A stretch of 64,000 nucleotides of DNA from Echinicola marina (GCF_020463795.1 NZ_CP080025.1:4213501-4277500), one strand, 5' to 3'. Numbered from the stretch's first letter, positions 19,542 through 49,792 are shown. Numbers and translations: made by a program. Notes: generated from the letters alone by a model not told the origin.

Positions 19542-19616
19542 CGGGGTGTAGCGTAGCCCGGTCATCGCGCCTCGTTTGGGACGAGGAGGTCGCAGGTTCG
19601 AATCCTGCCACTCCGA
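19542..19616 (+). tRNA. tRNA-Pro (anticodon UGG)
   Basis: The acceptor CGGGGTG pairs with CACTCCG (19609-19615, one G-U), with discriminator A at 19616. The anticodon stem CCTCG/CGAGG encloses TTTGGGA with anticodon TGG. The T-arm GCAGG-TTCGAAT-CCTGC is intact. It is the last conserved gene before the integrase, and tRNA 3' ends are common integration sites. Confidence 0.93.
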
Positions 19617-19640
19617 CTTTTTCGAATCCTTTCGAATGTA

Positions 19641-19900: not shown

Positions 19901-21175
19901 ATGAAAGTAAATAACACGTTTGGAATTCACTTTATAATCAGGAAATCTAGATCCAAGGCCGGGATGTGCCAAATTTATGTTAGAATTAGTCTGAACGGAT
20001 CAAGGAGAGAAATTTCCCTTAAAAAGTATGTTAAAGAGAGCGAATGGGACAAAAATAAGGGAAAGTTAAGAGGGACTCGTCGAAATGCCTCCGATACCAA
20101 TTTCTTTATAGAGGAGGTTAGGAGCCAGATTTATGAAGCTTATCATGAATTGGCCAATAAAAGGCGGGCATTTCATATTGATGATCTAAAGAATTATTAT
20201 TTAAGGGGTGGGGAGGAAAAGTATACATTGTTGCGCTTGATGGAATACCATAATCTTACCTTTGCCAATACACTTTCCAAAGGAAGTTTGAAAAATTATA
20301 GGACCACGGAAAAATACCTAAAGAAATATTTTAAAGAATGGTTAAGGGTTTCGGATGTTTTTTTAAGTGAAATAAACTATCGCTTTTTATCTGATTTTGA
20401 GTTTTTCCTAAGAAAGACTTTTCCAAAGGAAGGAAATAAAGGGCTGAGCAACAATGGGATCATGAAACATCTTGTAAGGCTTAAAAAGCTATCCTCATTT
20501 GGGGAAAGGTTGGAGTGGTTGGAAAAAGATCCTTTCGCTAAGTATCAGATAAAATTTGATAAAGTAGAGAGAGGTTTTTTGGATCAGGATGAATTAGAGC
20601 TTATAGAAAATACTGAATTTGAACTTCCAAGACTCATACTGGCCAAAGACCTTTTTGTGTTCAGTTGCTATACAGGATTATCCTATGTGGATATTATGAA
20701 TTTGAGCCTGACCCATATTATACGTGGAATAGATGGCGGGAAATGGATTTATACAACTAGGCAAAAAACTGGTGTAAAAGTCAAAATTCCAATATTGCCC
20801 TTTGCCGATAGGATGATTGAGAAATATAAAGAGGATCGTAGGGCCTTGGATAGAGGTACAATTTTTCCCTATGCTAGTAACCAAAAGCTCAACAAAAATT
20901 TGAAGGATATTGCAGCAGGATGCGGGCTGAATAAATACCTGACCTTTCATTTGGCCAGGCACACATTTGCTACAACTATTACTTTACTAAATGGTGTGCC
21001 TATAGAAACTGTGAGTAAGGTTTTGGGACATACCAAGATAACAACCACCCAGATTTATGCAAAAGTAGTGGAGTCGAAAGTTAGCGATGATATGGAGAAA
21101 CTACGTAATATTTTATCGAATAAAGAAATTAAAGAAAAAGATGTCAAAATTTCTAAATTTCCAGATTACAGGTAA
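19901..21175 (+). CDS. Tyrosine recombinase/integrase, Bacteroides CTnDOT-like family
   Basis: 424 residues. An N-terminal arm-binding domain (KSRSKAGMCQIYVRISLNG) is followed by a SAM-like core-binding domain (~105-215) and a C-terminal catalytic domain. Catalytic residues visible are HLARH (H-x-x-R, ~350), LGH (~375) and the nucleophile Tyr in TTTQIYAKV (~387). The first catalytic Arg position reads TGLSYVD, with Ser where other families have Arg, as described for CTnDOT-type IntDOT. The gene is complete and sits 285 bp after tRNA-Pro, so it probably catalysed entry of the accessory block there. No matching attR repeat was found in the window. Confidence 0.9.
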   Translation: MKVNNTFGIHFIIRKSRSKAGMCQIYVRISLNGSRREISLKKYVKESEWDKNKGKLRGTRRNASDTNFFIEEVRSQIYEAYHELANKRRAFHIDDLKNYYLRGGEEKYTLLRLMEYHNLTFANTLSKGSLKNYRTTEKYLKKYFKEWLRVSDVFLSEINYRFLSDFEFFLRKTFPKEGNKGLSNNGIMKHLVRLKKLSSFGERLEWLEKDPFAKYQIKFDKVERGFLDQDELELIENTEFELPRLILAKDLFVFSCYTGLSYVDIMNLSLTHIIRGIDGGKWIYTTRQKTGVKVKIPILPFADRMIEKYKEDRRALDRGTIFPYASNQKLNKNLKDIAAGCGLNKYLTFHLARHTFATTITLLNGVPIETVSKVLGHTKITTTQIYAKVVESKVSDDMEKLRNILSNKEIKEKDVKISKFPDYR

Positions 21176-26706: not shown

Positions 26707-28005
26707 TTATTTTTCAAAAATATCTATTATTTTCCCAAATATCCTATGGAAAAGTTTTAAATCTTCCGTGATAACTTGTGCTGAACCTATCATTTCAGGT
26801 TTTAGCTTGATTGCCTTGTTGTATGAAGTATTTGAAGAATTTTCTATTTCGACTAATACTCTATATATCCCATCTTTTTGGAGATTAGAAAGGTCGGTTA
26901 TACTTCCTTCTAAAGCTCCGAATTCGTGAGCTGGAAATGATTTTAATTTAATAATTACCCTTTGTCCCACTCTCAGTTTACCATACCCATTTGAAGTTAA
27001 ATTTAATATTCCCATGTAATTATGACCTTTAGGGACTATTCCAAATAATTCATCCCCAGAATTTATATATTGGTTTTTATGAATATCTACTAAATAATTT
27101 AATTCTCCATCGACAGGGCTTCTAATAATATTTTGGTATTCCCAAGAGTTTACTATACTTTTTAGTTTCCTTAAATTTTGGGAAATTTGATTTACAAAGT
27201 CCCTATTTCTTTTTTCTTTTTCATGTTTTAATTCAATTAATTGATCTATATAGTTATTCTTTACAATATTGGATTCCAAAATAATTTGTTTGTTTATATT
27301 AATCTGTTTTTCTTTTTCAAGAAAGGCTACCTTGTCTCCAAGATATTCAGAGTCTGGGATGATTTTTTTTTGATACATCTGCTCACTCATTAGATGAATC
27401 TTTTTATTTAGACTATACTGAAGCTTAGAAATACTATCATTTACCATGTATGTTCTAATTAACGTATTGTTTGTTTTTATTCGATTGTTTAAAACTTCAA
27501 ATTTCTTTTCATAATAATTGTCATTTAAAAATTCTGAATAATTTTTTAGTAATAAAATTAAACTATTTAAAACTTCTTGGTTTTCAGCAAGATTTACATT
27601 TTCAAAATAGGATGGAGTCTCACGAAAAAAGGATTTGTGTCCTAAATTTTCTTTTATGGTATTTAGAATGGATTTAACTTTTTTTATCGATCTAAGTGTA
27701 ACGTTATCTTCGAACTCAAGGATAATCTCATTATTCTTAACATATTGGTTATCCTTAACATGTAGCTGTGATATATAGCCGGTTTTTTTACCAACAAGTT
27801 TGGTTATTGGATCTTTCGTTGTAATTATTATTTCTCCTTCAACCAAATCAGGATATTGGATAAACCAGCTCATCAAAACTATAGCTGTTATAATAAGTCC
27901 AAATATAAGCATCCCATATTTTGTGCTCCAATCTGAGAAATTACTTACTACATCATTGTAGTCCTCGGATTTTTCTATATCCAAATCTTCATTCATCACT
28001 CTCAA
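26707..28005 (-). CDS. HlyD-family secretion adaptor (membrane fusion protein)
   Basis: 432 residues. One membrane helix lies at ~30-52 (GMLIFGLIITAIVLMSWF), followed by a lipoyl-like beta domain split by a long coiled coil (~100-290: KVKSILNTIKENLG...LKHEKEKRNRDFVNQISQNLRKLKS). The C-terminal lipoyl/beta-barrel has IIRSPVDGELNYLVDIHKNQ and GQRVIIKLKSFPAHEFG. It overlaps the ABC-peptidase gene by 4 bp. With that exporter it should form a type I-like channel for the lanthipeptide; a TolC-type outer-membrane partner is not encoded here. Confidence 0.88.
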   Translation of the reverse strand: MRVMNEDLDIEKSEDYNDVVSNFSDWSTKYGMLIFGLIITAIVLMSWFIQYPDLVEGEIIITTKDPITKLVGKKTGYISQLHVKDNQYVKNNEIILEFEDNVTLRSIKKVKSILNTIKENLGHKSFFRETPSYFENVNLAENQEVLNSLILLLKNYSEFLNDNYYEKKFEVLNNRIKTNNTLIRTYMVNDSISKLQYSLNKKIHLMSEQMYQKKIIPDSEYLGDKVAFLEKEKQININKQIILESNIVKNNYIDQLIELKHEKEKRNRDFVNQISQNLRKLKSIVNSWEYQNIIRSPVDGELNYLVDIHKNQYINSGDELFGIVPKGHNYMGILNLTSNGYGKLRVGQRVIIKLKSFPAHEFGALEGSITDLSNLQKDGIYRVLVEIENSSNTSYNKAIKLKPEMIGSAQVITEDLKLFHRIFGKIIDIFEK

Positions 28006-30215
28006 GAACTGATTTTTTCCAAAGTCAATTGATTCTTAACCAAATTGAAATACCTTCCTTTCAAATTTATTAATTCACTATGAGAACCTAGTTCAACAAT
28101 TTTCCCTTGTTCCATGACAACTATCTGATCTGCATTCTTAACCGTACTTAACCTGTGGGCAATAACAACCACTGTTTTGTTTTTGAAAAAAAGATTTAAG
28201 TTTTCCATTATCTTACTTTCATTGTTAGCATCAAGAGCACTAGTGGCCTCATCGAAAAATATAAATTCAGGATTTTTATAAACTGCTCTAGCAATTAATA
28301 ATCTTTGCTTTTGACCTGTACTTAATCCAAGACCGTCATTACCAATTTCAGTTAAATATCCATGAGGTAGTGAATTAATGAAATCTTCTATATTAGCAAC
28401 TTGAGAAGCTTTTTGGAGTTTTAATCTATCTATTCTGTCATCACCAAGTGCAATATTTTCTGAAATTGTACCACTAAAAATATACCCTTCTTGCATTACA
28501 ACACCACATTTTTTTCTCCAATCGGATTTACTTATATTCTGAAGCCTCACTCCCGAAATTGAAACTTCGCCGTTTTTAATATCGTAATAATTTAATAGAA
28601 TTTTCAATAAGGTTGTCTTCCCACACCCGCTTTCCCCAACAATTGCAGTTACTTTATTTGAGGGGATAGTCAAATCTATCTTTGACAAAACTTCTTTTTC
28701 TGAACCAGTATATTTAAAAGAAAGGTTTTTGAGATGGATACTGCTGTTTTCCGGGATACTATTTATTCCTATTAAATTTGAGTCCTCGTCTTCTTTATTC
28801 AGGATTTCTCTCAGTCTTTCTAAGCCTATTTTTGCGTTTTGAATTGAATGGGTAAAATCAACAAGTTGTCCTACTGGAGAATTTAGTTGTCCAATTATGT
28901 AAGATATTGACAGCATCATTCCTAAAGTTATTTCCCCATCTATTACAAGTTTTGCTGAATAATAAGTGATGAAGATATTTTTTAACTCGTTTATAATTAA
29001 TGAACCAGAAGTTTGAAATTGTTCTATAATTATATTTTTAAGACTAAGATTAAATAACTTAACTTGGAGTGTTTCCCAATTCCATCTTTTTAACTTTTCC
29101 GCATTATGTAATTTTATTTCCTGCATTCCATTGATAAATTCAATTATTTTACTTTTTTCTTTACTGACATAAGAGAATCTTTTGTAGTCTATTTCTTTTC
29201 TTTTTTTAAGAAAAAGAAATACCCATAGCAAATAAGCGAAGCTTCCGAAAAAGAAATAAAGGAAAATATCTACATTATAATATATTAATACGCCGCCAAA
29301 AATCAGTAAATTTAATATGGAGAACAGAACATTAATAGAGGTGCTGGTTAGTAATTGCTGAATTCTCGAATTATCATTAATTCTTTCTAGAATGTCTCCG
29401 GTCCTTTTGGAATCAAAATATGAAATTGGTAGGTTAAATAGTTTAATAAAAAAGTCAGAGACAAGAGAAATATTAATTCTGGCACTGATATTTACAAGTA
29501 TCCAGTTTCTGACAATTTCAATCCCTTGTCTTCCCAGGAATAGAAACAATTGTGCAATCAATATGATATTAATAAAGTCAATATTCTTATTTTGAATTCC
29601 AACATCTATTATACTTTGGGTTAGGAAAGGAAATATCAATTGGAGAAGGCTACCAAAAAGGAGACTTAGAAAGATTTGAAGAAAGACGGCCTTGTATTTT
29701 CGTAAGTAGCTTGAAATATACGCAAAATCAGATCCTGCTTCAGATTTTTCATCTTCATTTTCATAAAAACTTGGAGAAGGATCAAGCATTAATACAATCC
29801 CAGCTTTTTCTTCCGAATTTTCTCCTACCCAATGATTAATAAATTCCCTTTTAGGGTAACTTATTAGTCCAAAAGCGGGATCAGATACGCTTACTTTGTC
29901 CTTTTTAATTTTATAGACAACAACAAAATGTTTATTTTCCCAATGAACTATACAAGGAAGATTAATTCTAGATAGAAGTTCAGAAAAAGTTAATTTTAAT
30001 CCGATGGTCCTATACCCTAACTTCTCTGCAGCATCACTTAAATTTAAAAGAGTTGTTCCTTCTCTGGTTGTTTCACTTAATTCATTTAGGGTTTTTAAAG
30101 AAAAATTTTTTTTGTAATATTTTGAGACAATTCTTAAACAAGTTGGGCCACAATCTTTTTCATCTAGTTGTTTATATGTTGGAAATTTTTTCAAGGTGAT
30201 TTTAAATTTGCTCAC
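28002..30215 (-). CDS. lanT: Peptidase-containing ABC transporter (C39 protease-exporter, LanT-like)
   Basis: 737 residues. The N-terminal C39 peptidase has QLDEKDCGPTCLRIV (catalytic Cys), CIVHWENKHFVVVY (His) and VSDPAFG (Asp). Six membrane helices span ~165-440. The ATPase has Walker A GESGCGKTT, signature LSTGQKQRLLIARAV, Walker B FIFFDEATSALD and H-loop AHRLS. C39 exporters cut after double-glycine leaders and export the peptide, matching the IQGG motif of the precursor at 39095-39364. It follows lanB by 91 bp. Confidence 0.94.
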   Translation of the reverse strand: MSKFKITLKKFPTYKQLDEKDCGPTCLRIVSKYYKKNFSLKTLNELSETTREGTTLLNLSDAAEKLGYRTIGLKLTFSELLSRINLPCIVHWENKHFVVVYKIKKDKVSVSDPAFGLISYPKREFINHWVGENSEEKAGIVLMLDPSPSFYENEDEKSEAGSDFAYISSYLRKYKAVFLQIFLSLLFGSLLQLIFPFLTQSIIDVGIQNKNIDFINIILIAQLFLFLGRQGIEIVRNWILVNISARINISLVSDFFIKLFNLPISYFDSKRTGDILERINDNSRIQQLLTSTSINVLFSILNLLIFGGVLIYYNVDIFLYFFFGSFAYLLWVFLFLKKRKEIDYKRFSYVSKEKSKIIEFINGMQEIKLHNAEKLKRWNWETLQVKLFNLSLKNIIIEQFQTSGSLIINELKNIFITYYSAKLVIDGEITLGMMLSISYIIGQLNSPVGQLVDFTHSIQNAKIGLERLREILNKEDEDSNLIGINSIPENSSIHLKNLSFKYTGSEKEVLSKIDLTIPSNKVTAIVGESGCGKTTLLKILLNYYDIKNGEVSISGVRLQNISKSDWRKKCGVVMQEGYIFSGTISENIALGDDRIDRLKLQKASQVANIEDFINSLPHGYLTEIGNDGLGLSTGQKQRLLIARAVYKNPEFIFFDEATSALDANNESKIMENLNLFFKNKTVVVIAHRLSTVKNADQIVVMEQGKIVELGSHSELINLKGRYFNLVKNQLTLEKISS

Positions 30216-30306
30216 AACTTTGTTGTGAAATATTTTAATTAGTTAGATTACACTAAAACAATACTAAGAATAAATGCTTTTTTTGACCTACTAAATATTT
30301 AGGTTG

Positions 30307-33300
30307 TCAATTATATTTAATCTTAGCTAACTCTGACTTATAAAATTGATTTAAAACATCATAAATTACCATTTCATATTTCCTTTGTGAATTTTTGAAA
30401 ATTCTATTCATTGCCATATGCAAAAAGCTATATAAAAGATTAGTCAGCTCATTTCTATTGGAGGATATGCTTACCATTGATTGAATAGTAACCAAACTTC
30501 TATTTGAATAATTATCGATGGCTAACTTTATTATCTCCAGTTCTTTATCATCAAATTGATTAGATTTTAATACTGAATTTAAATCATTCCGAATATTACG
30601 ATATAATTTATTTAATTTTTTAATTGTAAATTTATTTTTGCCAAATTCTTTTCCGAAATTATCGGATAGGTTTAATAAAATCATGTGTTTTTCCTCAATA
30701 TTACATTTAAAATTTTCTAGAATTTGGTTAAGTAGCATTGTAGCAAAGTTCCATTTCTTTTGCTCTAATGTTTCAAAATCTAATTTTGCAAGGATTGCAA
30801 GAATTAGATCACTCTCAAAGTAAAAAAGGGACTCCACAAGATTTATATATTTACTTCCATACCTTTCTAGCTCTCGTCGATATACCGATAAATTATAATC
30901 AGAAATTAATCTGTCATTAATTAGTTTTTCTCCAATTTCATTTACAATATTATTTATAATTGAGAAATACGACTTATCGGAAGGTTCGATTCTAATTCTT
31001 AAATGGTAACCTTTTTCATCAAAATATCTAATGAAGAACCATTTCTTCATAAAATTATTTTGTTTCAATTGATTAATCAAAGGAGAAATAAACTCAATTA
31101 ATATAGAGTCTGAAAAATTTGGACCACAATAGAACTTATAAAATATCCATTCATCACCAATATTGAAATTTCTTTTCACTCCATTAATGGAAGAATAATC
31201 TTTATTGATTTGTGGCAAGTATACATCTGAATTATTAGTTAATGTGAATACAAATTGGCTAGCGAAGCCTTGGCCTGAGGTATCTCTAACAATAGCATTT
31301 TTTGAATCATGGATAAACTCAGTCAGTTGAATTTTAGATTTATTCTTTAATGATTCAACGAGTATGTTTCTTATTAATTTATTATCAAAATCAATGAGAA
31401 GTTTATTGTCACCTTCGTCCATTGTAACTAAGCTTGGTAAAGAATATTTCTTTTTCCATTTAGCAAATTCTTCTAAGTTTTGGTTAGTTAAAGCATTTTT
31501 TAATTCATTTGAAGAAAAATGCCATTTAGCCAATGATATTATAGCGCCTTTATAGGTTACTCTTGGCAAAAATTTGTAAGTTGATTCCAGCGGACCCCAG
31601 TTAAATTGTATTCCTTGTATCCAGTTGTGTGCACTCATGTCACATAAAAAATGGTAAATTGGAAGAGTCGTATTTTGATAGTTATGGGCATTAGTTAATT
31701 TTGGAATTATGAATTTATTTAATTTTTTAGATCTTAAGACTACCTTATTCCCACTTATAGATATATAAATATCATTAGGTACAATTTGATTATCTTCTTT
31801 TTTAGATGAGTTTGTCAAATAGGGAATTTCATATTGAGTAATATCAGGTCTTAGTAATATATTCCCAACTCTGCTACCAGGCAAGTGTACGATTTCAGCA
31901 AATATCCAATCCTCAGAAACAAGACCATTTTCTTTTTCATTTATTGTTTCAATTGTTTTCTTAATTGCGTTATTATCATTTGCAAATCTACCTAATATTT
32001 TTGCAGCAGAAGGACCCCAAATTGATGATACATGAACCTTGGAAATACCATTTTCATTAAAAATATTCGAAACCGCACTTAATGTACTAAAATCAAATAA
32101 TTCATCATTTGACTTTAACTCTTTGAGATCAGCAGATGTGAGCTTTATTTCATATTCCTTATTACTTGTTGCTTCTATTAATTTTCTTAACATTAAATCA
32201 AAAGTAGGATTCCAATTGAAAAGCTCACCGTTTTTATTACTTATAAAAAATGGAATCTGTCCTGTATACTCGCCTAAGTCTTCTATGTTGATATTGTGTC
32301 CATACCCGATTCCATATTCAGGATCAAGAGCTTCCAATAAACAAACTTCTTCTTCTCCATATCTACTTACAAAATCTTCAATAAATTTGGTCAAATTTTT
32401 ATTTTGAAAGCTAGTCCATAATTTTGATAATGCGTAAAATCCATCTTTGACATTTGCCTGAATGGAATCATCTATTAAATTTGATTTATTTGAAATATAT
32501 AAATCTACTTGAACGAACATCTTTGGGTCTATTTTAAAATTTAGACCTTCGATTTCACTAACCTTATCTAGTAGTTTTGTAAAATTAAAATCATTTAGAC
32601 TTCTCTGCCCAAAATTCTTTTTTATTTCTGATAATAGGTTGTAAAGTTTTACAGTCTCTTTATTTTGTTCCTGTATTTCGGTAAGCTTCTCTAGAAGAAA
32701 ATCTAGATAAAAGCTTCCACTTACCGTTGGTTCAATCGTTGGAATGATAATTTGGTTTTCGATTAATTCATCTATAAAGAATTCGATTTCCTCATTACCC
32801 AAATTTGGCTCTAATTCCTTGACAGAATTTATTAATTTAATATAAGATATTTCCTTTTTTGACTGATCAATTACTTTATCAATAATTTCTGACTTGGGGA
32901 CTTCACTTATTTCAAATTTTTTACTGCTGCCGTTAAACTTTGATTCGATATATCTGTAATTTTTACCCAATGAAAATAATGAAGTATTTAATCTATAATT
33001 AGTACTACTTCTAATATGTTCACTTTCCATTATTTGTTTGAAAAGTTGGCACATGAAATGCATATCAGGCCTCGTGGCAATGGAATGGTCAATTTTGTTA
33101 CTTACAGTGAAATTTGAATGATCACTAAACTTTCCAGTAGAACAACCTGCAAAAAAGCCAAAAGGAGTTTCTCTTGAGGTTATTCTTAAGAAATATTTAG
33201 TTAAGGTGATAATTAGTTTATTCATTTCTTTTTCACCTAATTGTTTTTCCTTAGCTTTTATTATTACGTTTAATAAACCAGGAGATGCTATGTTTAATGC

Positions 33301-33441
33301 TTGTTGATTAATAGGTTCTTCATAAAAATCAAATAAGAACTTAATTATTTCCTCATTTTTCAGCTTAAGGAATTCTTCCAAATGATTTAATGGGTGTAGG
33401 GGGGTTCTGACTACGAATGAATTTAGAATGTTAACTTGCAT
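30307..33441 (-). CDS. lanB: Full-length class I lantibiotic dehydratase LanB
   Basis: 1,044 residues, the usual LanB length. The N-terminal Lant_dehydr domain (glutamylation) includes TSRETPFGFFAGCSTG, ATRPDMHFM and FISRYGEEE. The middle has RVGNILLRPDI and GFASQFVFTLTNNSDVYLP. The C-terminal SpaB_C elimination domain (~760-1040) reads GDEWIFYKFYCGP, KKWFFIRYFDEKGYHLRIRI and YNLSVYRRELERYGS. LanB enzymes dehydrate Ser/Thr using glutamyl-tRNA. Codon use is extremely A+T-rich, like the rest of this cluster and unlike the conjugation genes. Confidence 0.94.
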   Translation of the reverse strand: MQVNILNSFVVRTPLHPLNHLEEFLKLKNEEIIKFLFDFYEEPINQQALNIASPGLLNVIIKAKEKQLGEKEMNKLIITLTKYFLRITSRETPFGFFAGCSTGKFSDHSNFTVSNKIDHSIATRPDMHFMCQLFKQIMESEHIRSSTNYRLNTSLFSLGKNYRYIESKFNGSSKKFEISEVPKSEIIDKVIDQSKKEISYIKLINSVKELEPNLGNEEIEFFIDELIENQIIIPTIEPTVSGSFYLDFLLEKLTEIQEQNKETVKLYNLLSEIKKNFGQRSLNDFNFTKLLDKVSEIEGLNFKIDPKMFVQVDLYISNKSNLIDDSIQANVKDGFYALSKLWTSFQNKNLTKFIEDFVSRYGEEEVCLLEALDPEYGIGYGHNINIEDLGEYTGQIPFFISNKNGELFNWNPTFDLMLRKLIEATSNKEYEIKLTSADLKELKSNDELFDFSTLSAVSNIFNENGISKVHVSSIWGPSAAKILGRFANDNNAIKKTIETINEKENGLVSEDWIFAEIVHLPGSRVGNILLRPDITQYEIPYLTNSSKKEDNQIVPNDIYISISGNKVVLRSKKLNKFIIPKLTNAHNYQNTTLPIYHFLCDMSAHNWIQGIQFNWGPLESTYKFLPRVTYKGAIISLAKWHFSSNELKNALTNQNLEEFAKWKKKYSLPSLVTMDEGDNKLLIDFDNKLIRNILVESLKNKSKIQLTEFIHDSKNAIVRDTSGQGFASQFVFTLTNNSDVYLPQINKDYSSINGVKRNFNIGDEWIFYKFYCGPNFSDSILIEFISPLINQLKQNNFMKKWFFIRYFDEKGYHLRIRIEPSDKSYFSIINNIVNEIGEKLINDRLISDYNLSVYRRELERYGSKYINLVESLFYFESDLILAILAKLDFETLEQKKWNFATMLLNQILENFKCNIEEKHMILLNLSDNFGKEFGKNKFTIKKLNKLYRNIRNDLNSVLKSNQFDDKELEIIKLAIDNYSNRSLVTIQSMVSISSNRNELTNLLYSFLHMAMNRIFKNSQRKYEMVIYDVLNQFYKSELAKIKYN

Positions 33442-33453
33442 TATAGATAAAAT

Positions 33454-34632
33454 TTATGACAATAAAAGTGAGGAGTCCCATGATTGATTTTTACTAAGTC
33501 TACCAAGTAGTCCTAATCCAACCCCAGCGGTTCCCTCCAAATAACCATAATTTATTTCCGGAACTTCAGTCCTTGGATCAAGTATAAAGTGATAGTTTTC
33601 ATCTTGTTTTCTCATTTTTAAGCCTACTCTGTACCAGTAATTTGAGCAGGTAAGTAAATCTGGATCTGGATAACTCAAATATGATTTATAGAAAATATAA
33701 GCTATTCCAATTGCTCCATGACATAGACAAGCATCTTTTACTAAATTTTCCTCTGGAGAAAGTCTTTTTGTACTATGGAGGAAAATTTCAATAGCCGAAT
33801 TTTTTAAATATTCAAATCCATCTATATTTGAAAGCTGCAGTAAAGCTGATCCAACGCTTAAGTCACCATAACACCAGGCTAATCGTGATTTTGAGCTATA
33901 TTTATTTGGTGCAGTGGTATAGTGATAAAAACAACCATGTAAATCTGTAGATAGCTTGTTATTTAGAAGAAATTTAATTCCTCCATTTATCATTTCCTCT
34001 GCTTTCTTAGTATTAATTTTTTTTTCAATCGCCTTTCCTAGAAAAACTAAAATAGCAGGAATCCCATGAGACAATCCTAAGTTAATTGGCAGTATGTTGC
34101 CATTTTCCATATTTGCCCATGTCACATGCCCATTACTGTCGAAAATGGCATTTTTATATAGTTCATTAACAAGGAATGTAATAGCTTCTTTTATTTTGAT
34201 ATTTATTTTATCTTTACTTAAAAAATATATTCCTATTCCTATTGAACCATGTAAAAAATCGAAATTTTTTCTATTTGCTAATAACTTTAATTGTTCAATA
34301 ATATAAGAATCCAATTCACCTAGTATATTTTCGGTATCTAATTTGTAAAAACCAAAAGTATTTATATGCTCAACTGTCCAAGCAAAACCTGATAGTCCGC
34401 TTGAAAATGTAAAGTTAAAATCATAATTAGAGAGGGCATTGTAACTTGCTTCAAGTTCAGATAATGCAAAATCTAAATATTTTCGATCTTGGGTGTGTCT
34501 ATAATAATAAATAAAAAAAATAATTAATCCAGATTTTCCTCCCATTAATCCAATTTCATTTTCCTTGTATTTATGGGTAATTAACTGATTTTTTATAATT
34601 ACTAATTCTTGTTCTAAAATAGAATTCTTCAT
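33454..34632 (-). CDS. lanC: Lanthionine cyclase LanC (copy 1)
   Basis: 392 residues with the alpha-toroid repeats of LanC (GLMGGKSGLIIFFIYYYR, DFLHGSIGIGIYFL, LGLSHGIPAILVFLG). Zinc ligands are seen in AWCYGDLSVG (Cys) and CLCHGAIGIAY (Cys-His), and the C-terminus is GYLEGTAGVGLGLLG. It should add Cys thiols to dehydrated residues to form (methyl)lanthionine rings. Lies 12 bp upstream of lanB. A second LanC is encoded at 37812-39017. Confidence 0.93.
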   Translation of the reverse strand: MKNSILEQELVIIKNQLITHKYKENEIGLMGGKSGLIIFFIYYYRHTQDRKYLDFALSELEASYNALSNYDFNFTFSSGLSGFAWTVEHINTFGFYKLDTENILGELDSYIIEQLKLLANRKNFDFLHGSIGIGIYFLSKDKINIKIKEAITFLVNELYKNAIFDSNGHVTWANMENGNILPINLGLSHGIPAILVFLGKAIEKKINTKKAEEMINGGIKFLLNNKLSTDLHGCFYHYTTAPNKYSSKSRLAWCYGDLSVGSALLQLSNIDGFEYLKNSAIEIFLHSTKRLSPEENLVKDACLCHGAIGIAYIFYKSYLSYPDPDLLTCSNYWYRVGLKMRKQDENYHFILDPRTEVPEINYGYLEGTAGVGLGLLGRLSKNQSWDSSLLLS

Positions 34633-34643
34633 TTTAATAATCT

Positions 34644-35519
34644 CTAAAGTTTAACTTCAAGCATATGGAATTTAACAATTAATAATGCCCTTATAAAGTA
34701 AAGTACTGAAATAGAGCATTGATTGAGGATAATATCGTATAAGTTGAATTTGTTTATTTTAAAATGGTCGGTTTCAAATAAGTCATTAATGGCCTGTTTT
34801 AATTCCAATTTTAGATTGTTTTCTTTCTGGATTAGTATTTGTTCAATGTCCTCATCAAAATTTTTAAGGACTTTTGTAGTATCTAAATATAATTCATTAT
34901 AATCATCCTTTTGAATATTGTACTGGGTAATAAAATGATTTAGCAATTCTAGAATATGGGTTTCTAACTCGTTACTATTTTCTTCTTTCATTAACAATTT
35001 AAAGTGTTTTTCAAAAAATAAAATTAAAAAGAATATATCAGCATCATCGTCTTCTACTTTGTCTTGTAATAACTTAAAACTAATTAAACTTATATTAGTA
35101 AATTGTTTAAAAGCACTTAAATCACGATTATATCCGTAAAAAGGAAGATTTACACCTTCCACTAATTCAATTTGGTTATTTTGGAATTCCATGAAAAGAC
35201 TTTTTTTCGGAATTAAATTTGATTTTAATAATGAGGGGCTTTTTAAAAGATATTTTTTTATTTCACTTTCAAACTCTAACACGAATTTTTTATTTGAAGT
35301 GGATTTGAATTGAAAAGATATTAATACATTATCACCTTTGTGTTTACTCCTGATAAAGGAAAAATTTATCTCTTTTCTGGATTTAATTAATTTATAATAC
35401 GTATTCACTAAAAAGTCTAAAATTAAATAATCCATTCGTTTTGGATCATAGTAGATAGCATAACTTAATACATTTTTTGTATTCATGATAAAATATTTGT
35501 TAGAATTCGAGTTCACCAA
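34644..35519 (-). CDS. Stand-alone SpaB_C-like (thiopeptide-type bacteriocin biosynthesis) protein
   Basis: 291 residues. The start YAIYYDPKRMDYLILDFLVN and the following strand pattern (INFSFIRSKHKGDNVLISFQF, FVLEFESEIKKYL) and GYNRDLSAFKQFTNISLIS parallel the elimination domain at the C-terminus of LanB (YKFYCG..., WFFIRY...LRIRI, YRRELERYG). The catalytic Arg/His residues of active SpaB_C domains are not obvious, so it might be a structural or leader-binding partner. Overlaps the glycosyltransferase gene by 20 bp and precedes lanC copy 1 by 11 bp. Assignment is by order and pattern only. Confidence 0.5.
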   Translation of the reverse strand: MVNSNSNKYFIMNTKNVLSYAIYYDPKRMDYLILDFLVNTYYKLIKSRKEINFSFIRSKHKGDNVLISFQFKSTSNKKFVLEFESEIKKYLLKSPSLLKSNLIPKKSLFMEFQNNQIELVEGVNLPFYGYNRDLSAFKQFTNISLISFKLLQDKVEDDDADIFFLILFFEKHFKLLMKEENSNELETHILELLNHFITQYNIQKDDYNELYLDTTKVLKNFDEDIEQILIQKENNLKLELKQAINDLFETDHFKINKFNLYDIILNQCSISVLYFIRALLIVKFHMLEVKL

Positions 35520-36513
35520 ATGAGAATCTGTTTACGCTTTTGAGACCCTCTTTATTATTCTTTAATAGTTTGCTGTAATTCCAAATAAGGGAATATTTTC
35601 GTTTAACCTCTTCTAGGAAATTATTATCTGAGATTTTGTAAAAAGTATTTTCACTGTTGGAAATAGTGCTAGAATCACATATATTAAAAATTTTATCACC
35701 AAAGGAAATTTTTCGATTTGATTTATTATATAAACCCTTTTGAGAAAATTCTTCCAAAATTCCAGGTAAGGAATCTGTGAAATCTTTTCCATTTGAAAGA
35801 ATTCTGAATTTTTCAAATGTATAGTCCTTAAATGTATAGATTATATCAGATTCTTTAGGAGTTATATATCTGATATATATATCATTAATATTTGTAAATG
35901 GTTTATAATTTGAATATCTAATATCAGATTCATGTTCAATAGTTTTTAAATATTTGGAATTAGTTAAAAAAAATTTCTTTCTACTGATTAACTCTAGCCT
36001 ATTATAAAAATCAATATCTTCCCACCCATAACCTTTCATTTCTTCGTCATATCCCCTAACTTTTAAAAAATCATCCTTCAAAACACAGACCCTGCCAAGA
36101 ATACTAGTTGTTCCTCCATTGTTTTTTGGGACAACAAAGACATCCTTGTTAGTATTGAAAACTTGATTGATATAGCTTGCAAAACTAACTCCCGTATAAT
36201 TATCTGCATCAACATTGCAAATAATATCTCCGGTTGCATATTTAGCAACAATATTTTTAGCATGGCTCATGTGGAAATATTTAGGGGAATCAGTCTTTAT
36301 GTACTTTATTTTTCCAGAATTGAGATAGGTTCTCATATCTTGATGAATCCATGTATCTAGATCATCAGACGAATTATAATTCAAAACAACAAAATCAACA
36401 TTATCATAATCAGAATTATCTTTTATGTTTTTTGATAGAGTTTTTTTTAAGTGATGAGTTCTATTCATACAGGTTGTACAAATTGAGATTTTGCTATTTT
36501 TCATTATTACCAT
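35500..36513 (-). CDS. Family 2 (GT-A) glycosyltransferase
   Basis: 337 residues. The GT-A start is SKISICTTCMNRTHHLKKTL, the DxD-type site is ICNVDADNY (~95), and the C-terminal part of the domain has GYDEEMKGYGWEDIDFYNRL, a galactosyltransferase-like acceptor motif. No membrane helix is seen. Overlaps its neighbours on both sides by 20 bp, so it belongs to the lanthipeptide operon and may glycosylate the peptide or a resistance target. An alternative start is the second Met three codons in. Confidence 0.8.
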   Translation of the reverse strand: MVIMKNSKISICTTCMNRTHHLKKTLSKNIKDNSDYDNVDFVVLNYNSSDDLDTWIHQDMRTYLNSGKIKYIKTDSPKYFHMSHAKNIVAKYATGDIICNVDADNYTGVSFASYINQVFNTNKDVFVVPKNNGGTTSILGRVCVLKDDFLKVRGYDEEMKGYGWEDIDFYNRLELISRKKFFLTNSKYLKTIEHESDIRYSNYKPFTNINDIYIRYITPKESDIIYTFKDYTFEKFRILSNGKDFTDSLPGILEEFSQKGLYNKSNRKISFGDKIFNICDSSTISNSENTFYKISDNNFLEEVKRKYSLIWNYSKLLKNNKEGLKSVNRFSFGELEF

Positions 36514-37786
36514 TTATTGTATTACACGGGTACATATTTTTTATATAAAAAATGCCGTCAAACATTTTAAACCAACTTGCTAGAACGGGTTTATGAACCA
36601 TAGCTTTCATAAAAAATGCCTTTTCAGAATTTTTCTTTCTGCCTTTTTTAAAATCTAAATAGCCATAATCACTACCTTCATTATATACTAATGATTCAAA
36701 ATGATTTAATGTAGGCTCAGGAATTGTATAGGCTTCTGATAAAATTCTCCCACCTCGTCCTTCATAGGATGTAAAGCCTAATACAAATAGTTTATCTTTA
36801 AGTTTTTCATAGATATAGCTTCCGGTATTAATTGTATCAGCATTATTTGTGAACTGAGAGTATTTATTTAATTGTTTGAACTCCTTAATAATATGAAAAT
36901 TAGAACTCCAAAAAATAATTTTTTTCCCTTTATATTTATGTTTGATCAACCACAATAAATTGTTTCCCATTTGAATATCCCGAATATTATTGCTTTTAAG
37001 GGTGTCAAGTGAATTACGTACAAACCCTTCTAAATTATTAAGTTCTTGGTACCAAAAAGAGTTAGACTCTATTTCTTCTTTGAATTTGTTAATCAATCCA
37101 AACAATTTTTTTTGGTCTGTAGCCTTTATTTTTATATTATATTCATTTTCAATTGTATTCTTAATTGTGTTAAGAAAGAAGCTCCTTTGGGAACTATCTA
37201 TCTTGTGAATTCTTTCATCCAGGAAATCTGTTAACTCATGCAAATAATTATTCTTTGAATATTTTAATGAATGTCTTGGATCAGCTCCTGCGATTTGTAA
37301 TGGTCTTTTGGTATTAGATTTTTGATCAATGTATTTAAAAAGGGCATTACACTCTTTACATTCAGTCCATATCGGGTAGATGTTTTCTATATACTCCCCT
37401 CCTTTTGAATTTCTTTTAAGGTCTTTCTCCCATGCATTATTCAATCCATAAAAATCACTCTCAAATACTATTACATCAAACCCCATTTCCTCATATAGAA
37501 ATTTCACTATTCTAGTTTTGGCTAGCATGGTCGGACCGTCACCATGATCTTGCTCACCTAAAAATACTATATCTGATTTTCCTATTGATTGCTTCAAAAA
37601 AATTAAGTCATCAAAGCTTTCTGCCATCGGATCTATAGAATCAATAACTATATAATTGTTGGAAATGAATTCTTTAATATTTTTATCGATGGGAAATAAG
37701 AATTTCAAAAGAAAATAATTATAAAAGGCTAATGATAAAATTATAAATGAAATTACTCCAATTATCCATTTTTTATATTTATTCAT
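36494..37786 (-). CDS. Erythromycin esterase-family protein, membrane-anchored
   Basis: 430 residues. One membrane helix lies at ~8-30 (WIIGVISFIILSLAFYNYFL). The erythromycin-esterase/EreA-like domain has DIVFLGEQDHGDGPTMLAK (family H/E residues), IVFESDFYGLNNAW, PLQIAGADPRHS and IIFWSSNFHI. Family members hydrolyse macrolide lactones, but most homologues have unknown substrates. In this operon it may open or form an ester on the peptide or provide immunity; that is inference. Overlaps the glycosyltransferase start by 20 bp. Confidence 0.85.
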   Translation of the reverse strand: MNKYKKWIIGVISFIILSLAFYNYFLLKFLFPIDKNIKEFISNNYIVIDSIDPMAESFDDLIFLKQSIGKSDIVFLGEQDHGDGPTMLAKTRIVKFLYEEMGFDVIVFESDFYGLNNAWEKDLKRNSKGGEYIENIYPIWTECKECNALFKYIDQKSNTKRPLQIAGADPRHSLKYSKNNYLHELTDFLDERIHKIDSSQRSFFLNTIKNTIENEYNIKIKATDQKKLFGLINKFKEEIESNSFWYQELNNLEGFVRNSLDTLKSNNIRDIQMGNNLLWLIKHKYKGKKIIFWSSNFHIIKEFKQLNKYSQFTNNADTINTGSYIYEKLKDKLFVLGFTSYEGRGGRILSEAYTIPEPTLNHFESLVYNEGSDYGYLDFKKGRKKNSEKAFFMKAMVHKPVLASWFKMFDGIFYIKNMYPCNTINGNNEK

Positions 37787-37811
37787 AAATAATATAATAT
37801 ATTTTTAAATA

Positions 37812-39017
37812 TTAACATAATATAAGTTCTGTCCAGCTATTACATGATTGATCAGGGTTCAATTTGCTAATATAAGTTAATCCAATACCGGCCAATCCAT
37901 CAAGAACTCCAGGCTTATAGCTCCATCTTTTTGTAAGTTGGGACTCTAAAAATCGATATCTGCTGTATGAATCATCTAATATTCTTAAGTCCAAAGTTTT
38001 ATTAATCCAAAAATTTGAGCTATCATTAAATTCCTTAATTCCACTTTCATTGTAAAGTTTGTTGAAAATGATGGCTAAACCGGAAGTACCATGGCATAGA
38101 CAACCATCATTTATATAGTTTGTCTTCATGTCCCTTCTTTGTGATGAGAAAAGAAATAATTCTAACAAAAAAGGCTTTACATACTCAAAGTCGCTTTTTT
38201 TAGTTACTTCCCAGAGGGAAAGGCCTACACTTAAATCTCCATAGCACCATGCCAGTCTAGAAGAATCCTTATATTTATCAAATGGCAGTGAATGCGGGAA
38301 ATAAAATCCAAAATGGCTATGGTCCAAGGAATTATTTAAAAGAAATTTAGTTCCTCCTGAAAGTAGTTTTTTTACCTTATCTTTTTCTAGCCCTCTGTCT
38401 AATATATTACTTAGTATGAAAATAATAGCAGGTATCCCATGTGCTATTCCTAAATTATACATCTCATCTTCTTGTCTATTACGGTTTTGCCAATTTTTCC
38501 ACGAAACTACCTCATTATTAGTCTCACTATAAAAATATAAGGACTGGACAATTAATGAAAGGGCATTACTTGTCAACTCGTTTTCCCTTCTCTTAAGGAA
38601 ATATAAACCCAGACCTAGCGCTCCATGTAAAAAGTCAAAATTTCCAATTTCACACATTTTTTTTAATTCAAGAAATAGAATTTCATCAAATTCTTCTAAT
38701 AAAATGTCTGAGTTTAGGCCCATTAACTCATTTTTACTAATATATTCTATAAGCCATCCTATACCTGCTATTCCATTTGCAAAACTATAATCCAACTCTT
38801 CTTGTTCCACATAATCCAGCACTTCACAAAGCATGTTATAACACTGTTCTAAATGCTCTGTTTTACCGTATAATTTATAATAATTAATATGGAATAGAAT
38901 TATTCCACTCTTACCCCCCATTAAACCGATATTCGAATTTTTGTGAAAATCCTTATTTAATAGGTTATAGATATAATCGATCTCGTTAATCAATATATTT
39001 TTTTTATTCAATTTCAA
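37812..39017 (-). CDS. lanC: Lanthionine cyclase LanC (copy 2)
   Basis: 401 residues with the same layout as copy 1: NIGLMGGKSGIILFHINYY, DFLHGALGLGLYFLK, LGIAHGIPAIIFIL, zinc Cys in AWCYGDLSVGLSL and Cys-His in CLCHGTSGLAIIF, and the end GVLDGLAGIGLTYIS. Divergence from copy 1 is substantial, so the two may make different rings. First enzyme gene after the precursor, 77 bp downstream of it and beyond the palindrome. Confidence 0.93.
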   Translation of the reverse strand: MKLNKKNILINEIDYIYNLLNKDFHKNSNIGLMGGKSGIILFHINYYKLYGKTEHLEQCYNMLCEVLDYVEQEELDYSFANGIAGIGWLIEYISKNELMGLNSDILLEEFDEILFLELKKMCEIGNFDFLHGALGLGLYFLKRRENELTSNALSLIVQSLYFYSETNNEVVSWKNWQNRNRQEDEMYNLGIAHGIPAIIFILSNILDRGLEKDKVKKLLSGGTKFLLNNSLDHSHFGFYFPHSLPFDKYKDSSRLAWCYGDLSVGLSLWEVTKKSDFEYVKPFLLELFLFSSQRRDMKTNYINDGCLCHGTSGLAIIFNKLYNESGIKEFNDSSNFWINKTLDLRILDDSYSRYRFLESQLTKRWSYKPGVLDGLAGIGLTYISKLNPDQSCNSWTELILC

Positions 39018-39061
39018 ACTATTTATATTAACAAAAAAGATAAAATTAATAACTAATAATG

Positions 39062-39085
39062 AAGGAAGGGGAGCTCCCCTTCCTT
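39062..39085. promoter_or_regulatory. Perfect 24-nt palindrome after the precursor gene
   Basis: AAGGAAGGGGAG followed by CTCCCCTTCCTT is a perfect palindrome 9 bp beyond the precursor stop codon, inside the 77-bp gap before lanC copy 2. On the transcript it forms a G+C-rich stem without a following U-run (CATTATTAG), so it is more likely a partial terminator or 3' stabiliser that yields more precursor than enzyme mRNA. Confidence 0.7.
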
Positions 39086-39094
39086 TTACTCAAC

Positions 39095-39364
39095 TTATCC
39101 TCCACATAAGCATATACTTCCTTTAGAATAATCACAGTTTCTCGACTGTTCACAACCTGATTGAACGTTTGTATTATTACCTGTAGTACAATTTACTGTA
39201 CAATCTTGATAAGTACAGTTCCATGCTGTTTGAAGCGGTCCACAGCCATCTGTACAGCCATCTGTAAATGCACCACCTTGAATTTGACTCATTTCATTTC
39301 TACCCAGCTTTGCTATTGTTTTTTTTCCTAAGCTGAGTTTTCTGTTTAACTTGTTGTTTTTCAT
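39095..39364 (-). CDS. lanA: Class I lanthipeptide precursor with double-glycine leader
   Basis: 89 residues from the ATG at 39362-39364 (an upstream in-frame Met at 39442 would add 26 unlikely residues). The leader of 31 residues, rich in Lys/Asn, ends M-S-Q-I-Q-G-G, a C39 cleavage site. The core of 58 residues (AFTDGCTDGCGPLQTAW...SICLCGG) contains 9 Cys and 12 Ser/Thr, many as T-x-x-C or C-T pairs. This fits dehydration by LanB, cyclisation by LanC and cleavage/export by LanT, all encoded downstream on the same strand. Ring topology cannot be deduced. Confidence 0.9.
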   Translation of the reverse strand: MKNNKLNRKLSLGKKTIAKLGRNEMSQIQGGAFTDGCTDGCGPLQTAWNCTYQDCTVNCTTGNNTNVQSGCEQSRNCDYSKGSICLCGG

Positions 39365-39536: not shown

Positions 39537-40092
39537 CCTCGACGCTCTGCGTCGGGGTAAGCTGAAAAATTTGAAAAACAAAGAGTTTTTCAAGACACTT
39601 TGAAAAAGAGTACTTTCGCTAAATGGGAGATCATATATTAAGCGACATAATAAAACGCTATTACTATATCATTTAGTGTTTCCTTTAAAGTATAGGAAAT
39701 CAGTAATAACCGATGAAGTAGGAGAAGGTTTGAAACAGATATGTTTGGGAATTTCAGAACGCTATGAGATTCATTTTGTCGAGATCGGTCATGAACCAGA
39801 TCACGTTCTTTTTTTAGTTCATAAAGTGTCTCGAGCTATTCAATTTAAAAATGGCAAATATGTTAAAAAGTATAACGGGGAAGGAGTTGTTTAGACGGTT
39901 TCCAGATAGAAGGGTGAAATTATCTGGCGGAAAGTTCTGGACGAGTGGATATTCAGTTGGCCAATATGCAAACGAAGAGGTAATAAAAGCATATGTTAAA
40001 AATCAAGAAGTTGAGAAAGATTATAAAAAATTACCTGCAAATCAACTAACATTATTTTGATACCTCGGTGGCTCTGCCTCGGAGTGGTTCAT
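39537..40092 (+). mobile_element. Degenerate IS200/IS605-type element
   Basis: A left-end hairpin, CCTCGACGC-TCT-GCGTCGGGG (39537-39557), and a right-end imperfect hairpin around GGCTCTGCC (40062-40088) flank a decayed TnpA-type gene. Subterminal hairpins with a tnpA-like gene and no inverted repeats are the hallmark of single-strand transposing IS200/IS605 elements. It sits between the lanthipeptide precursor and a precursor relic. Confidence 0.65.
39610..40060 (+). pseudogene. IS200-like TnpA (Y1 transposase) remnant
   Basis: The first frame reads KTLLLYHLVFPLKYRKSVIT, YEIHFVEIGHEPDHVLFLV (the H-x-H region normally HVHFLV has lost its first His spacing) and then drifts. A second frame resumes at about 39851 with LKSITGKELFRRFPDRRV, KFWTSGYSVGQYANEEVIKAY and NQLTLF. 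A frameshift and altered HUH motif make it inactive in cis. Confidence 0.7.
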
Positions 40093-41591
40093 TCGTTTTA
40101 TTAAGTGATTTTATTTCTAAATTATTGATTGGTATTTTAGGGTCAAACTGCTAAGAGTGTAAAGGTGGTTTCATATTGGGAAACTCTTTTCAGTCAGCAT
40201 AATTAGGCATTTTTGATTTGACAATATCTAGGCGGTGGCAGGAAAGCCTATAATGAAAGTTTATTGCTTTCTTTCTATAACTGTACTATTTGATCCTTCC
40301 GGTAAGGGTAGTGCGGCCCGGGATATTTTTTAGGGCCGTTCCGTTAGAATAACTGGTATTCACACTGACGACCAAGTGCCGATATATACTTTTTTTGAGG
40401 GCATAATCCCCTCATTTTTAACCCTTTCCTGAAAAGCTAAAAAGGAAAATCCAACTTAATCAAATATTGTAATAGTAAACCCTGGTTAAAAACAAGGGCT
40501 GATTCGTCAAAACCGGCTCCTAGTACCTCTATTGGATGCCCAAAATTTTAAAATCTACTTTTGATACAGCCTCAGAATCCTTATTGAAACATTACATTGT
40601 GAGGATAGTATTCACGTGAGTTGCAATTGAGAACCGGTATTCAAGTCCCGTTTTAACCTCTGGATATTTTCAAGATCAAGAAGTCAATATGCTCTGGAAA
40701 AGTCACACTAAATTAACATTCAAGTAGTGCACCGTGTATAAGGTAATGGATCACAATCCATTGTGCAATTGTGATAAGTACAGTTCCATGCTATTTGAAG
40801 CGGTGTGAACCATCCGCTTCTTCAGAAGACAGGGATCGCGTTCCGGCAATCAGCAAGATGTAGTTTTGTATACAAAACCCTCTTTTCAGCCTCCGAAGTC
40901 GGTGGAAAGGTGCTCGGGACTCGCAGCCTTTTGATGGAGGGAAGCCTGGGCCATAATGGTTGAAATGTGTTGTGGCAGATCTGGGTAAAAAGTCAACTAT
41001 ACCCTTTAAATCAGGGGGGAAGAATTCAAATTATCTGTTATTTCTTTAAGGGTTTCATCGGTATCCACTCCACCTTGCTGCAAAGCTATGCCGGTCAAGA
41101 AAACGGTCAAGGGCAGGATAAATGCTTCCTGTCGTCAGCACCCTTGACCTTTATTCCTTCCCGTTATAAGGTGGCATCCAAGAGGAGTGAATGGTAAGGT
41201 ATGGTCATTTTTTAAACTAGCTAAGAAATAAGGTATTTGTTAATTAGCGTCCTTATTTCCAAAAAGGTTGTTTTTACGATTTTTTAGATCATGTGTTATA
41301 ATTCCTGCATCTTCTACAAATTGGTGTCCAATAGTTGGGCAAGCATTTTAAGCAGATATTTGTAGCGATCTTAAATGGTATTCAAAATCAGATATAAATC
41401 ATAGTTAGGTGATAGAAATTGTCTTCTTATTTAATTAAAGTGAAATGCTATACGTCCTTATACAGTTTTTTGAGTTCATTTTTTATTTCAAATAGATATT
41501 TTGTGTTTGACATCAGCAAAAAGTGGACAGTTTAAGAGATGAAATTAAGATAGAGGTTTATTAACTTTATTCACCTCTAAAAAAGTCAGTA
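40093..41591. other. Degraded intergenic region
   Basis: About 1.5 kb without a credible intact gene. It contains the precursor relic at 40720-40803. A 76-codon plus-strand frame (40967-41197) has no recognisable feature. The mixed composition suggests fragments from several insertions. Confidence 0.5.
40720..40803 (-). pseudogene. Relic of a second lanthipeptide precursor (core end only)
   Basis: The minus strand reads PLQIAWNCTYHNCTMDCDPL, then PYTRCTT and a TGA at 40720-40722. Its first half matches PLQTAWNCTYQDCTVNC of the live precursor with few changes (20 identical nucleotides at 40774-40793). Homology stops at GAAGCGGT (40797-40804), where a GAAGCGG-(10 nt)-CCGCTTC hairpin begins. 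No leader is upstream; a stop follows a few codons above. Probably the remains of a second precursor separated from the operon by rearrangement. Confidence 0.75.
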
Positions 41592-45170: not shown

Positions 45171-45548
45171 ATGGGAAATAAACACAAAGCCCCTTTAATG
45201 CTAGTTCAGTCGAGGATTCCCTCTTCCCGATACCGGGAATTACTTGATCTGCTCACCAAGTCCCAAAACCCAACCATGAGCTCCCTGATCAGGGATGTCC
45301 TGTCCAATAAGACCATTGTCTGCAAAACGCATGATGAAACCTATGACCTGCTCATGGACAGGATTTTGTCCATCCAAATGGAAATCCATGCCATCGGAGT
45401 GAACATCAACCAGGTGACCCGCTATTTCAACAGTCTGGAAGATCCACTTAGAAAGAAGGTACTGGTCAAAAAGTTGGAGAAACTATTGACCGAAACAGGG
45501 ATAAAGGTGGACGGTTTGGAAAAACTGGTCACGGAAAGTCTTCTCTGA
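45171..45548 (+). CDS. Mobilisation accessory protein (MobC/BmgB-like)
   Basis: 125 residues. An N-terminal ribbon-helix-helix-like start (LVQSRIPSSRYRELLDLL...MSSLIRDVLSN) is followed by a helical tail (IQMEIHAIGVNINQVTRYFNSL), as in bacterial mobilisation relaxosome proteins that bind oriT and help the relaxase. Its stop overlaps the relaxase start by one base. Confidence 0.85.
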   Translation: MGNKHKAPLMLVQSRIPSSRYRELLDLLTKSQNPTMSSLIRDVLSNKTIVCKTHDETYDLLMDRILSIQMEIHAIGVNINQVTRYFNSLEDPLRKKVLVKKLEKLLTETGIKVDGLEKLVTESLL

Positions 45549-48818: not shown

Positions 48819-48821
48819 TAG

Positions 48822-49004
48822 TTATTTGGATTTGTGAAGGTATTTTGTCGCTGGACTGGCTTCAAAGGGGTCCAACTCTATAATTTTTCCATCCTTGTAT
48901 ACTACCAAGGGACTGTTCTTTTGCTTTTTGAATTCAACCATCTTCTTGTAGGTTTCTTCCAATCCTTTAATGATTTTTTTTCTTGTATCGTCAGCCTTTT
49001 TCAT
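48822..49004 (-). CDS. Small putative antitoxin of the zeta-like toxin
   Basis: 60 residues. A charged N-terminal helix (DDTRKKIIKGLEETYKKMVEF) is followed by VVYKDGKIIELDPFEAS. The start overlaps the toxin gene end by 14 bp, so it is translationally coupled and downstream of the toxin, the reverse of the usual antitoxin-first order. Small partners of this kind accompany zeta-like kinases in Bacteroidota. Confidence 0.65.
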   Translation of the reverse strand: MKKADDTRKKIIKGLEETYKKMVEFKKQKNSPLVVYKDGKIIELDPFEASPATKYLHKSK

Positions 49005-49569: not shown

Positions 49570-49792
49570 TTGGGGTAAATATAATGTATGAGACCTAAAA
49601 CAGCGATAATTTTTATTTCTTATTCAATTACCCAGCTAAGTTAGGCAGCCATGGCCCATACAGGACAAGGAACTTCTGCATAAAGCCATTGCTGTTTCCT
49701 TGGCTTGTTTATTCCGATCCTCCTTGCCTTTAATGTGCCCTGCTGCCTGGGGATGCTTCATAATTAAAATCATTCACCAAAACGATGTTATT

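What the first reader, a model, noticed from the sequence alone, without database searches (positions are those of the whole stretch)
26707..39364. Nine-gene class I lanthipeptide cluster with two cyclases, a glycosyltransferase and an erythromycin-esterase homologue
Sequence shows, all on the minus strand and closely packed: precursor, LanC, EreA-like protein, GT2, SpaB_C-like protein, LanC, LanB, C39-ABC exporter, HlyD. LanB/LanC/C39 roles are established family knowledge. The presence of two LanCs plus GT and esterase homologues for one visible precursor is unusual, and few Bacteroidota lanthipeptides (for example pinensins) are characterised. The product may be a glycosylated, heavily bridged peptide (inference). 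Its very A+T-rich composition against the neighbouring conjugation genes suggests separate acquisition.
Basis: partly seen in the sequence, partly recalled or inferred. Interest (0 to 1): 0.85.

Follow-up and report, generated by a model that had tools for sequence, protein, structure and literature searches.

The report
Mobile lanthipeptide cluster with exported hydrolase
This is an intact bacterial gene cluster for making a heavily cross-linked peptide, probably an antimicrobial, carried on a mobile element; its odd 'erythromycin-esterase' gene encodes a probably exported enzyme that related clusters have picked up independently, which points to a job outside the cytoplasm such as self-protection or final trimming.

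Summary
LanB and both LanCs keep their catalytic residues, and the precursor is of the known Bacteroidota class I type. The cluster is cargo of a ~77-kb element integrated at tRNA-Pro; ten congeners show no comparable LanB.

Corrections and additions: (1) A truncated second precursor core lies at about 40720-40810, beyond an IS200 remnant. (2) The SpaB_C-like protein lacks the elimination-domain catalytic residues. (3) The EreA-like protein has an N-terminal membrane segment, so it probably acts in the periplasm, not as a cytosolic tailoring enzyme. (4) EreA-like genes recur in four other Bacteroidota lan operons, all with export signals. They are not one lineage, so they were probably recruited repeatedly. 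Other lan operons carry an exported S41 peptidase, the family of nisin-resistance protein NSR.

Best reading: a standard class I pathway plus a periplasmic hydrolase for self-protection or trimming (function inferred). Glycosylation is plausible but untested. New variant of a known kind.

The parts
39095..39364 (-). LanA precursor, 89 aa, leader ends GG, 58-aa core with 9 Cys and 12 Ser/Thr
39063..39084 (-). Hairpin between LanA and LanC2 (terminator or attenuator-like, inferred)
   Evidence: -20.3 kcal/mol, z -3.4
37812..39017 (-). LanC cyclase (LanC2)
36494..37786 (-). EreA-like hydrolase with N-terminal membrane segment, predicted periplasmic
35500..36513 (-). GT2-type glycosyltransferase (DAD and WED motifs)
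34644..35519 (-). Remote SpaB_C-like protein lacking elimination residues
33454..34632 (-). LanC cyclase (LanC1)
30307..33441 (-). Full-length LanB dehydratase
28002..30215 (-). C39-ABC peptidase/exporter
26707..28005 (-). HlyD-like membrane fusion protein
40720..40810 (-). Truncated second precursor core (PLQIAWNCTYHNCTMDCDPLPYTRCTT), no leader
   Evidence: 52 bp at 87%, E 4e-12; 17 aa at 71%, E 5e-7
39676..40060 (+). Frameshifted IS200-type transposase remnant between LanA and the second core
   Evidence: Y1_Tnp 6e-9 and 7e-8
19542..19617 (+). tRNA-Pro; its 3' end is the left end of the element
19901..21175 (+). Tyrosine integrase of the carrier element
45548..58815 (+). Conjugation region (relaxase, coupling protein, TraG, TraJ, TraM)

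Best explanation
This is a class I lanthipeptide operon with all core enzymes intact, carried as cargo on a ~77-kb integrated conjugative element in a Bacteroidota chromosome. The LanA leader recruits LanB, which glutamylates and eliminates Ser/Thr in a 58-aa core with 9 Cys and 12 Ser/Thr. Two LanC paralogues then close up to nine (methyl)lanthionine rings. The C39-ABC exporter cuts after Gly-Gly and, with HlyD and a host TolC, exports the product (gene content and residues shown; steps inferred from family knowledge). The EreA-like protein is anchored in the inner membrane facing the periplasm and hydrolyses a bond of the mature or mis-localised product, giving self-protection (somewhat more likely) or final trimming (location, chemistry and role inferred; substrate unknown). 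The GT2 may glycosylate the peptide in the cytosol. The SpaB_C-like protein is a non-eliminating relative of the LanB elimination domain, perhaps a binding partner (weak inference).
For: Domain hits for all core genes. LanB residues R12, R86, R90, T92, D126, D313, R485, R815, R817, E857, R860, H1008, R1013, E1023 correspond to catalytic positions recalled for NisB; they are invariant among nine close LanBs and nearly all invariant in 36. Both LanCs keep the cyclase motifs. The leader matches the published Bacteroidota motif. EreA-like genes with an N-terminal export signal sit in four other lan operons: L091/L158, L095, L105, L222. Ere active-site residues are conserved. The lan-associated EreAs are not one clade (AU p 2e-44). 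Other lan operons carry an exported S41 peptidase near LanB, and no surveyed locus has both. NSR, an S41 peptidase, inactivates nisin. No LanI or LanFEG gene is among the nine. Element ends and machinery.
Against: No expression, mass or activity data. Lack of LanI/LanFEG is weak support, since an outer membrane may already protect the producer. Ere enzymes are known to hydrolyse esters, whereas a lanthipeptide offers amides and thioethers, so the substrate is unclear. Zero overlap of Ere and S41 among the loci is what chance alone would often give. The AU test included L171, whose Ere may not belong to its lan operon, and some long branches. An IS remnant lies upstream of LanA and no Bacteroidota-type promoter matched there, so transcription could be impaired.
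Confidence: 0.62

Rival explanations
1. The EreA-like protein is a maturation enzyme rather than an immunity factor: after export it trims or opens a bond in the core, or removes an ester-linked group, to give the final product.
For: Lies between LanA/LanC and the enzymes in the operon; a similar place is taken by S41 and S33 hydrolases in other operons; Ere catalytic residues intact.
Against: C39 already removes the leader; nothing in the sequence shows an ester in the product; the enzyme family differs between clusters, which suits protection as well.
Confidence: 0.3
2. The EreA-like protein is a general resistance or housekeeping hydrolase that entered the operon by chance and has no role in the peptide pathway.
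For: Its closest relatives (37-40% identity, 100/99 support) are stand-alone membrane-anchored EreAs in the host family with no lan genes nearby.
Against: EreA-like genes lie in four other lan operons, while the background is about one per 25 Mb (84 places in 390 genomes), so about 0.1 would be expected in the ~2.2 Mb surveyed (rough estimate).
Confidence: 0.15
3. The cluster is decaying: the IS200 insertion and loss of the second precursor have left it silent.
For: IS200 remnant and truncated core at 39676-40810; no canonical Bacteroidota promoter match upstream of LanA.
Against: All nine genes are intact with conserved active sites, which suggests continued selection or recent arrival; 230 bp of non-IS sequence remains upstream of LanA.
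Confidence: 0.2

Closest known systems
Bacteroidota class I lanthipeptide clusters (LxLxKx5L leader, GG site, LanB, LanC, C39 transporter), as mined in PMC7268733
   Same: Leader motif, GG site, full-length LanB, LanC, C39-ABC, HlyD
   Different: Two LanCs, an EreA-like gene, a GT2 and a degenerate SpaB_C-like protein are combined here; GT2 and SpaB_C-like had no convincing match in 119 related loci
Pinensins, the lanthipeptides isolated from Bacteroidota as of PMC7268733
   Same: Class I, Bacteroidota
   Different: Pinensin LanB is split into two polypeptides (PMC7268733); here LanB is full length and the core is 58 aa with 9 Cys
Full-length LanB plus extra elimination-domain homologue (PMC7268733)
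   Same: Same gene arrangement in outline
   Different: Here the extra protein lacks the elimination catalytic residues and is only marginally detectable as a relative
EreA/EreC erythromycin esterases; structures 2qgm and 2rad
   Same: Sequence family; catalytic E, H, E, R, H conserved with near-identical spacing
   Different: N-terminal membrane segment, location in a lan operon, macrolide activity unknown
NSR nisin resistance protein (S41 peptidase)
   Same: Functional analogy only: membrane-associated hydrolase that acts on a lanthipeptide
   Different: Different protein family; S41 genes occur in other clusters of the survey, not in this one
Erythromycin-esterase homologues in graspetide loci (PMC8939145)
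   Same: Ere homologue beside a RiPP precursor and a double-glycine peptidase; those authors also proposed modification or resistance
   Different: Graspetide loci of gammaproteobacteria, not lanthipeptides

Membership tests
Class I lanthipeptide biosynthetic cluster | LanB with glutamylation and elimination residues | tested here: met
   NisB residue numbers recalled, not looked up
Class I lanthipeptide biosynthetic cluster | Stand-alone LanC with Cys/Cys/His zinc site | tested here: met
   two copies; WCYG and CHG motifs in both
Class I lanthipeptide biosynthetic cluster | Precursor with recognised leader and Ser/Thr/Cys-rich core | tested here: met
   lant_leader_L1a 38 bits over a cut-off of 22; 12 Ser/Thr, 9 Cys
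Class I lanthipeptide biosynthetic cluster | Lanthionine-containing product | not testable with these tools
   needs mass spectrometry
Erythromycin esterase (Ere) family | Catalytic E47/H50/E78/R261/H289 (EreC numbering) | tested here: met
   E78, H81, E109, R269, H298 invariant in six homologues; correspondence by spacing and motif
Erythromycin esterase (Ere) family | Macrolactone hydrolysis | not testable with these tools
   NCBIfam EreB far below its cut-off, 33 against 750 bits
LanB elimination domain (SpaB_C) | Conserved Arg/His/Glu catalytic residues | tested here: not met
   HxRxR, RExxRY and HMxxNR motifs of the other 19 sequences are absent
LanB elimination domain (SpaB_C) | Sequence or fold similarity | tested here: inconclusive
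   PF14028 E=0.012; model pLDDT 56 with NisB and TbtD among the best matches, but built on an alignment of LanB domains
Integrative conjugative element | Integrase at a tRNA, duplicated end, relaxase, coupling protein, Tra genes | tested here: met
   tRNA-Pro 3' end repeated at 21/23 about 77 kb away; integrase, relaxase, TraG, TraJ, TraM
Integrative conjugative element | Excision and transfer | not testable with these tools
   needs junction PCR or mating
Lanthipeptide immunity hydrolase (NSR-like role) | Protects the producer by hydrolysing the peptide | not testable with these tools
   inferred from export signal and recurrence only

The most novel reading that the evidence does not exclude
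Exported EreA-like enzymes are a convergently recruited class of periplasmic lanthipeptide hydrolases in Gram-negative Bacteroidota, serving self-immunity or maturation in place of LanI/LanFEG and parallel to S41 peptidases; here one is combined with a glycosyltransferase and a repurposed, non-eliminating SpaB_C-like protein on a mobile element.
Probability: 0.3. Interest if true: 0.72.

Novelty: new variant of a known kind. Interest (0 to 1): 0.5.

Why it matters
How Gram-negative Bacteroidota survive and finish their own lanthipeptides is largely uncharacterised. A repeatedly recruited, exported EreA-like hydrolase, in operons parallel to those with S41 peptidases, gives a concrete and testable candidate for that step. 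It also offers a possible natural role for a protein family best known for macrolide resistance. Carriage on a conjugative element would let production and any linked protection move together.

Tried and rejected
LanB single-protein scan of genome contigs found nothing; the alignment-based scan gave 79 loci. An EreA alignment was too divergent to scan with. Most close stand-alone EreA relatives were checked and have no lan genes nearby. Structure of the SpaB_C-like protein alone was uninformative (pLDDT 41); with LanB elimination domains as alignment it rose to 56, which is partly circular. A profile of LanB C-terminal domains did not detect the SpaB_C-like protein. GT2 had no relative at E<=1e-25 in 395 genomes of the phylum. 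Flank comparison with congeners did not give a clean empty site, because the neighbourhood is rearranged. Plasmid search found LanBs at about 31% at best and none related to the SpaB_C-like protein. Rejected: EreA-like protein as a cytosolic tailoring enzyme (membrane segment or signal peptide in all five lan-associated copies). Rejected: LanC pair as one active and one decayed copy (both keep all motifs).

Full report
Observation. The nine genes are present at 26707-39364 on the minus strand, closely packed, with strong domain assignments for LanB, both LanCs, the C39-ABC exporter and the EreA-like protein, and clear ones for HlyD and GT2. The precursor carries the curated class I leader and fits the LxLxKx5L motif with a terminal GG described for Bacteroidota (PMC7268733): LSLGKKTIAKL ... 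QGG followed by a 58-aa core with 9 Cys, 8 Thr and 4 Ser. The window is part of a 5.69-Mb single-contig genome.

Active sites. In an alignment of 36 LanBs the glutamylation- and elimination-domain positions are almost all invariant, and they line up with NisB in the printed alignment (the NisB residue numbers are from memory). Both LanCs keep the WCYG and CHG motifs and the preceding His and Asp motifs. They are 35% identical and group as sisters with moderate support, 80/95, so they are old paralogues, not a recent duplication. Two-LanC loci also occur elsewhere, for example L120 and L218. What each LanC does here is not known.

A second precursor. A 52-bp stretch at 40753-40804 is 87% identical to the LanA core (E 4e-12) and reads in frame as PLQIAWNCTYHNCTMDCDPLPYTRCTT-stop. 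It has no leader, and its upstream part resembles a sequence repeated elsewhere in the genome. Between it and LanA lies a frameshifted IS200-type transposase. The cluster therefore once had at least two precursors. A stable hairpin follows LanA (-20.3 kcal/mol, z -3.4), as is common between bacteriocin precursors and their enzymes (general knowledge).

The EreA-like protein. It belongs to the Ere family, and residues E78, H81, E109, R269 and H298 match the EreC catalytic set in kind and near-identical spacing. Its N-terminus is a hydrophobic segment after a basic start, read by eye as a signal anchor. Of 119 LanB loci examined (40 from the genome search, 79 from genome contigs, with a few duplicates), EreA-like genes lie on the LanB strand within 4 kb in L091/L158 (Vicingaceae), L095, L105, L222 (Chryseobacterium sp. 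LAM-KRS1) and, doubtfully, L171. In L095 and L105 the order is LanA-EreA-LanC-LanB-C39ABC-HlyD. All of these except L171, which I did not count, begin with a signal-peptide-like segment. In the background sample there were 84 EreA places in 390 genomes, about one per 25 Mb, so about 0.1 would be expected in the roughly 2.2 Mb surveyed; this is an estimate, and the taxon mix differs.

Repeated recruitment. In a tree of 26 EreAs the window copy groups with stand-alone copies from its own family (100/99), and the lan-associated copies do not form a clade; forcing them together is rejected (log-likelihood 121 lower, AU p 2e-44). The set included L171 and several long branches, so the exact number of recruitments is uncertain, but the separate position of the window copy is well supported.

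A shared slot. Eight unannotated proteins next to LanB or LanC in other operons all proved to be S41 peptidases with N-terminal export signals; S41 genes lie on the LanB strand within 4 kb in about eleven distinct loci, and no locus has both S41 and EreA. With these numbers, zero overlap is not significant. One operon carries an exported S33-type hydrolase (L118). NSR, an S41 peptidase, inactivates nisin by cleavage (PMC4698656). The common thread, an exported hydrolase encoded with the pathway, suggests self-protection or trimming; this is inference. Authors working on graspetides raised the same two options for an Ere homologue there (PMC8939145).

GT2 and the SpaB_C-like protein. GT2 has a DAD motif and a WED motif, so it looks active, but it has no close relative in 395 genomes of the phylum; whether it glycosylates the peptide is open. 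The SpaB_C-like protein has only a sub-threshold PF14028 match, shows the FFIRY-like N-terminal strand pattern but lacks the HxRxR, RExxRY and HMxxNR motifs, and its model is of low confidence. It may be a repurposed, non-eliminating relative; extra elimination-domain homologues beside full-length LanB are already known (PMC7268733).

Mobility. The cluster lies in an element bounded by tRNA-Pro (19542-19617) and a 21/23 copy of its 3' end about 77 kb downstream (L131:12979-13001), with an integrase at 19901 and relaxase, coupling protein, TraG, TraJ and TraM genes downstream. A 17-bp repeat also occurs near both ends. The cluster's G+C is 28.7% against 45.2% for the tra region. None of ten congeners has a relative of the SpaB_C-like protein, and only one weak LanB match appears among them. 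An empty site could not be shown cleanly.

Conclusion. The finding is a real and apparently complete class I lanthipeptide cluster of a known kind with an unusual accessory set. The most informative point is the exported EreA-like enzyme as a recurrent accessory of Bacteroidota lan operons.

Noticed in passing
G000:C1:2057819-2059414 (L002, L003, L054): A second, distant LanB-like protein of about 880 aa elsewhere in the same genome, with a weak LanC-like ORF about 7 kb away in L054; possibly another RiPP locus, and a similar LanB-like match occurs in congener G776.
   Followed up: partly
L089, L090, L092, L093, L099, L107, L108, L226: Exported S41 peptidases are a recurrent accessory of Bacteroidota class I lan operons (all eight confirmed by Pfam).
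   Followed up: yes
L101, L109, L120, L214: Proteins of about 300 aa beside LanB/LanC resemble luciferase-like monooxygenases by eye; possibly Dha-reducing enzymes. Not run against Pfam.
   Followed up: no
L109:7138-8373: A protein of 411 aa directly after LanB resembles a different type of glycosyltransferase by eye; glycosylation may occur in other Bacteroidota lan clusters.
   Followed up: no
window 22136-23338: Mutator-type transposase inside the element, between the integrase and the cluster.
   Followed up: no
window 40830-40900: Short sequence repeated at least four times elsewhere in the genome (88-96% identity), abutting the truncated second precursor.
   Followed up: partly
congeners G777 and G769: Right-flank gene of the element lies upstream of the tRNA in reverse orientation in G777, suggesting a rearrangement around this tRNA cluster.
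   Followed up: partly
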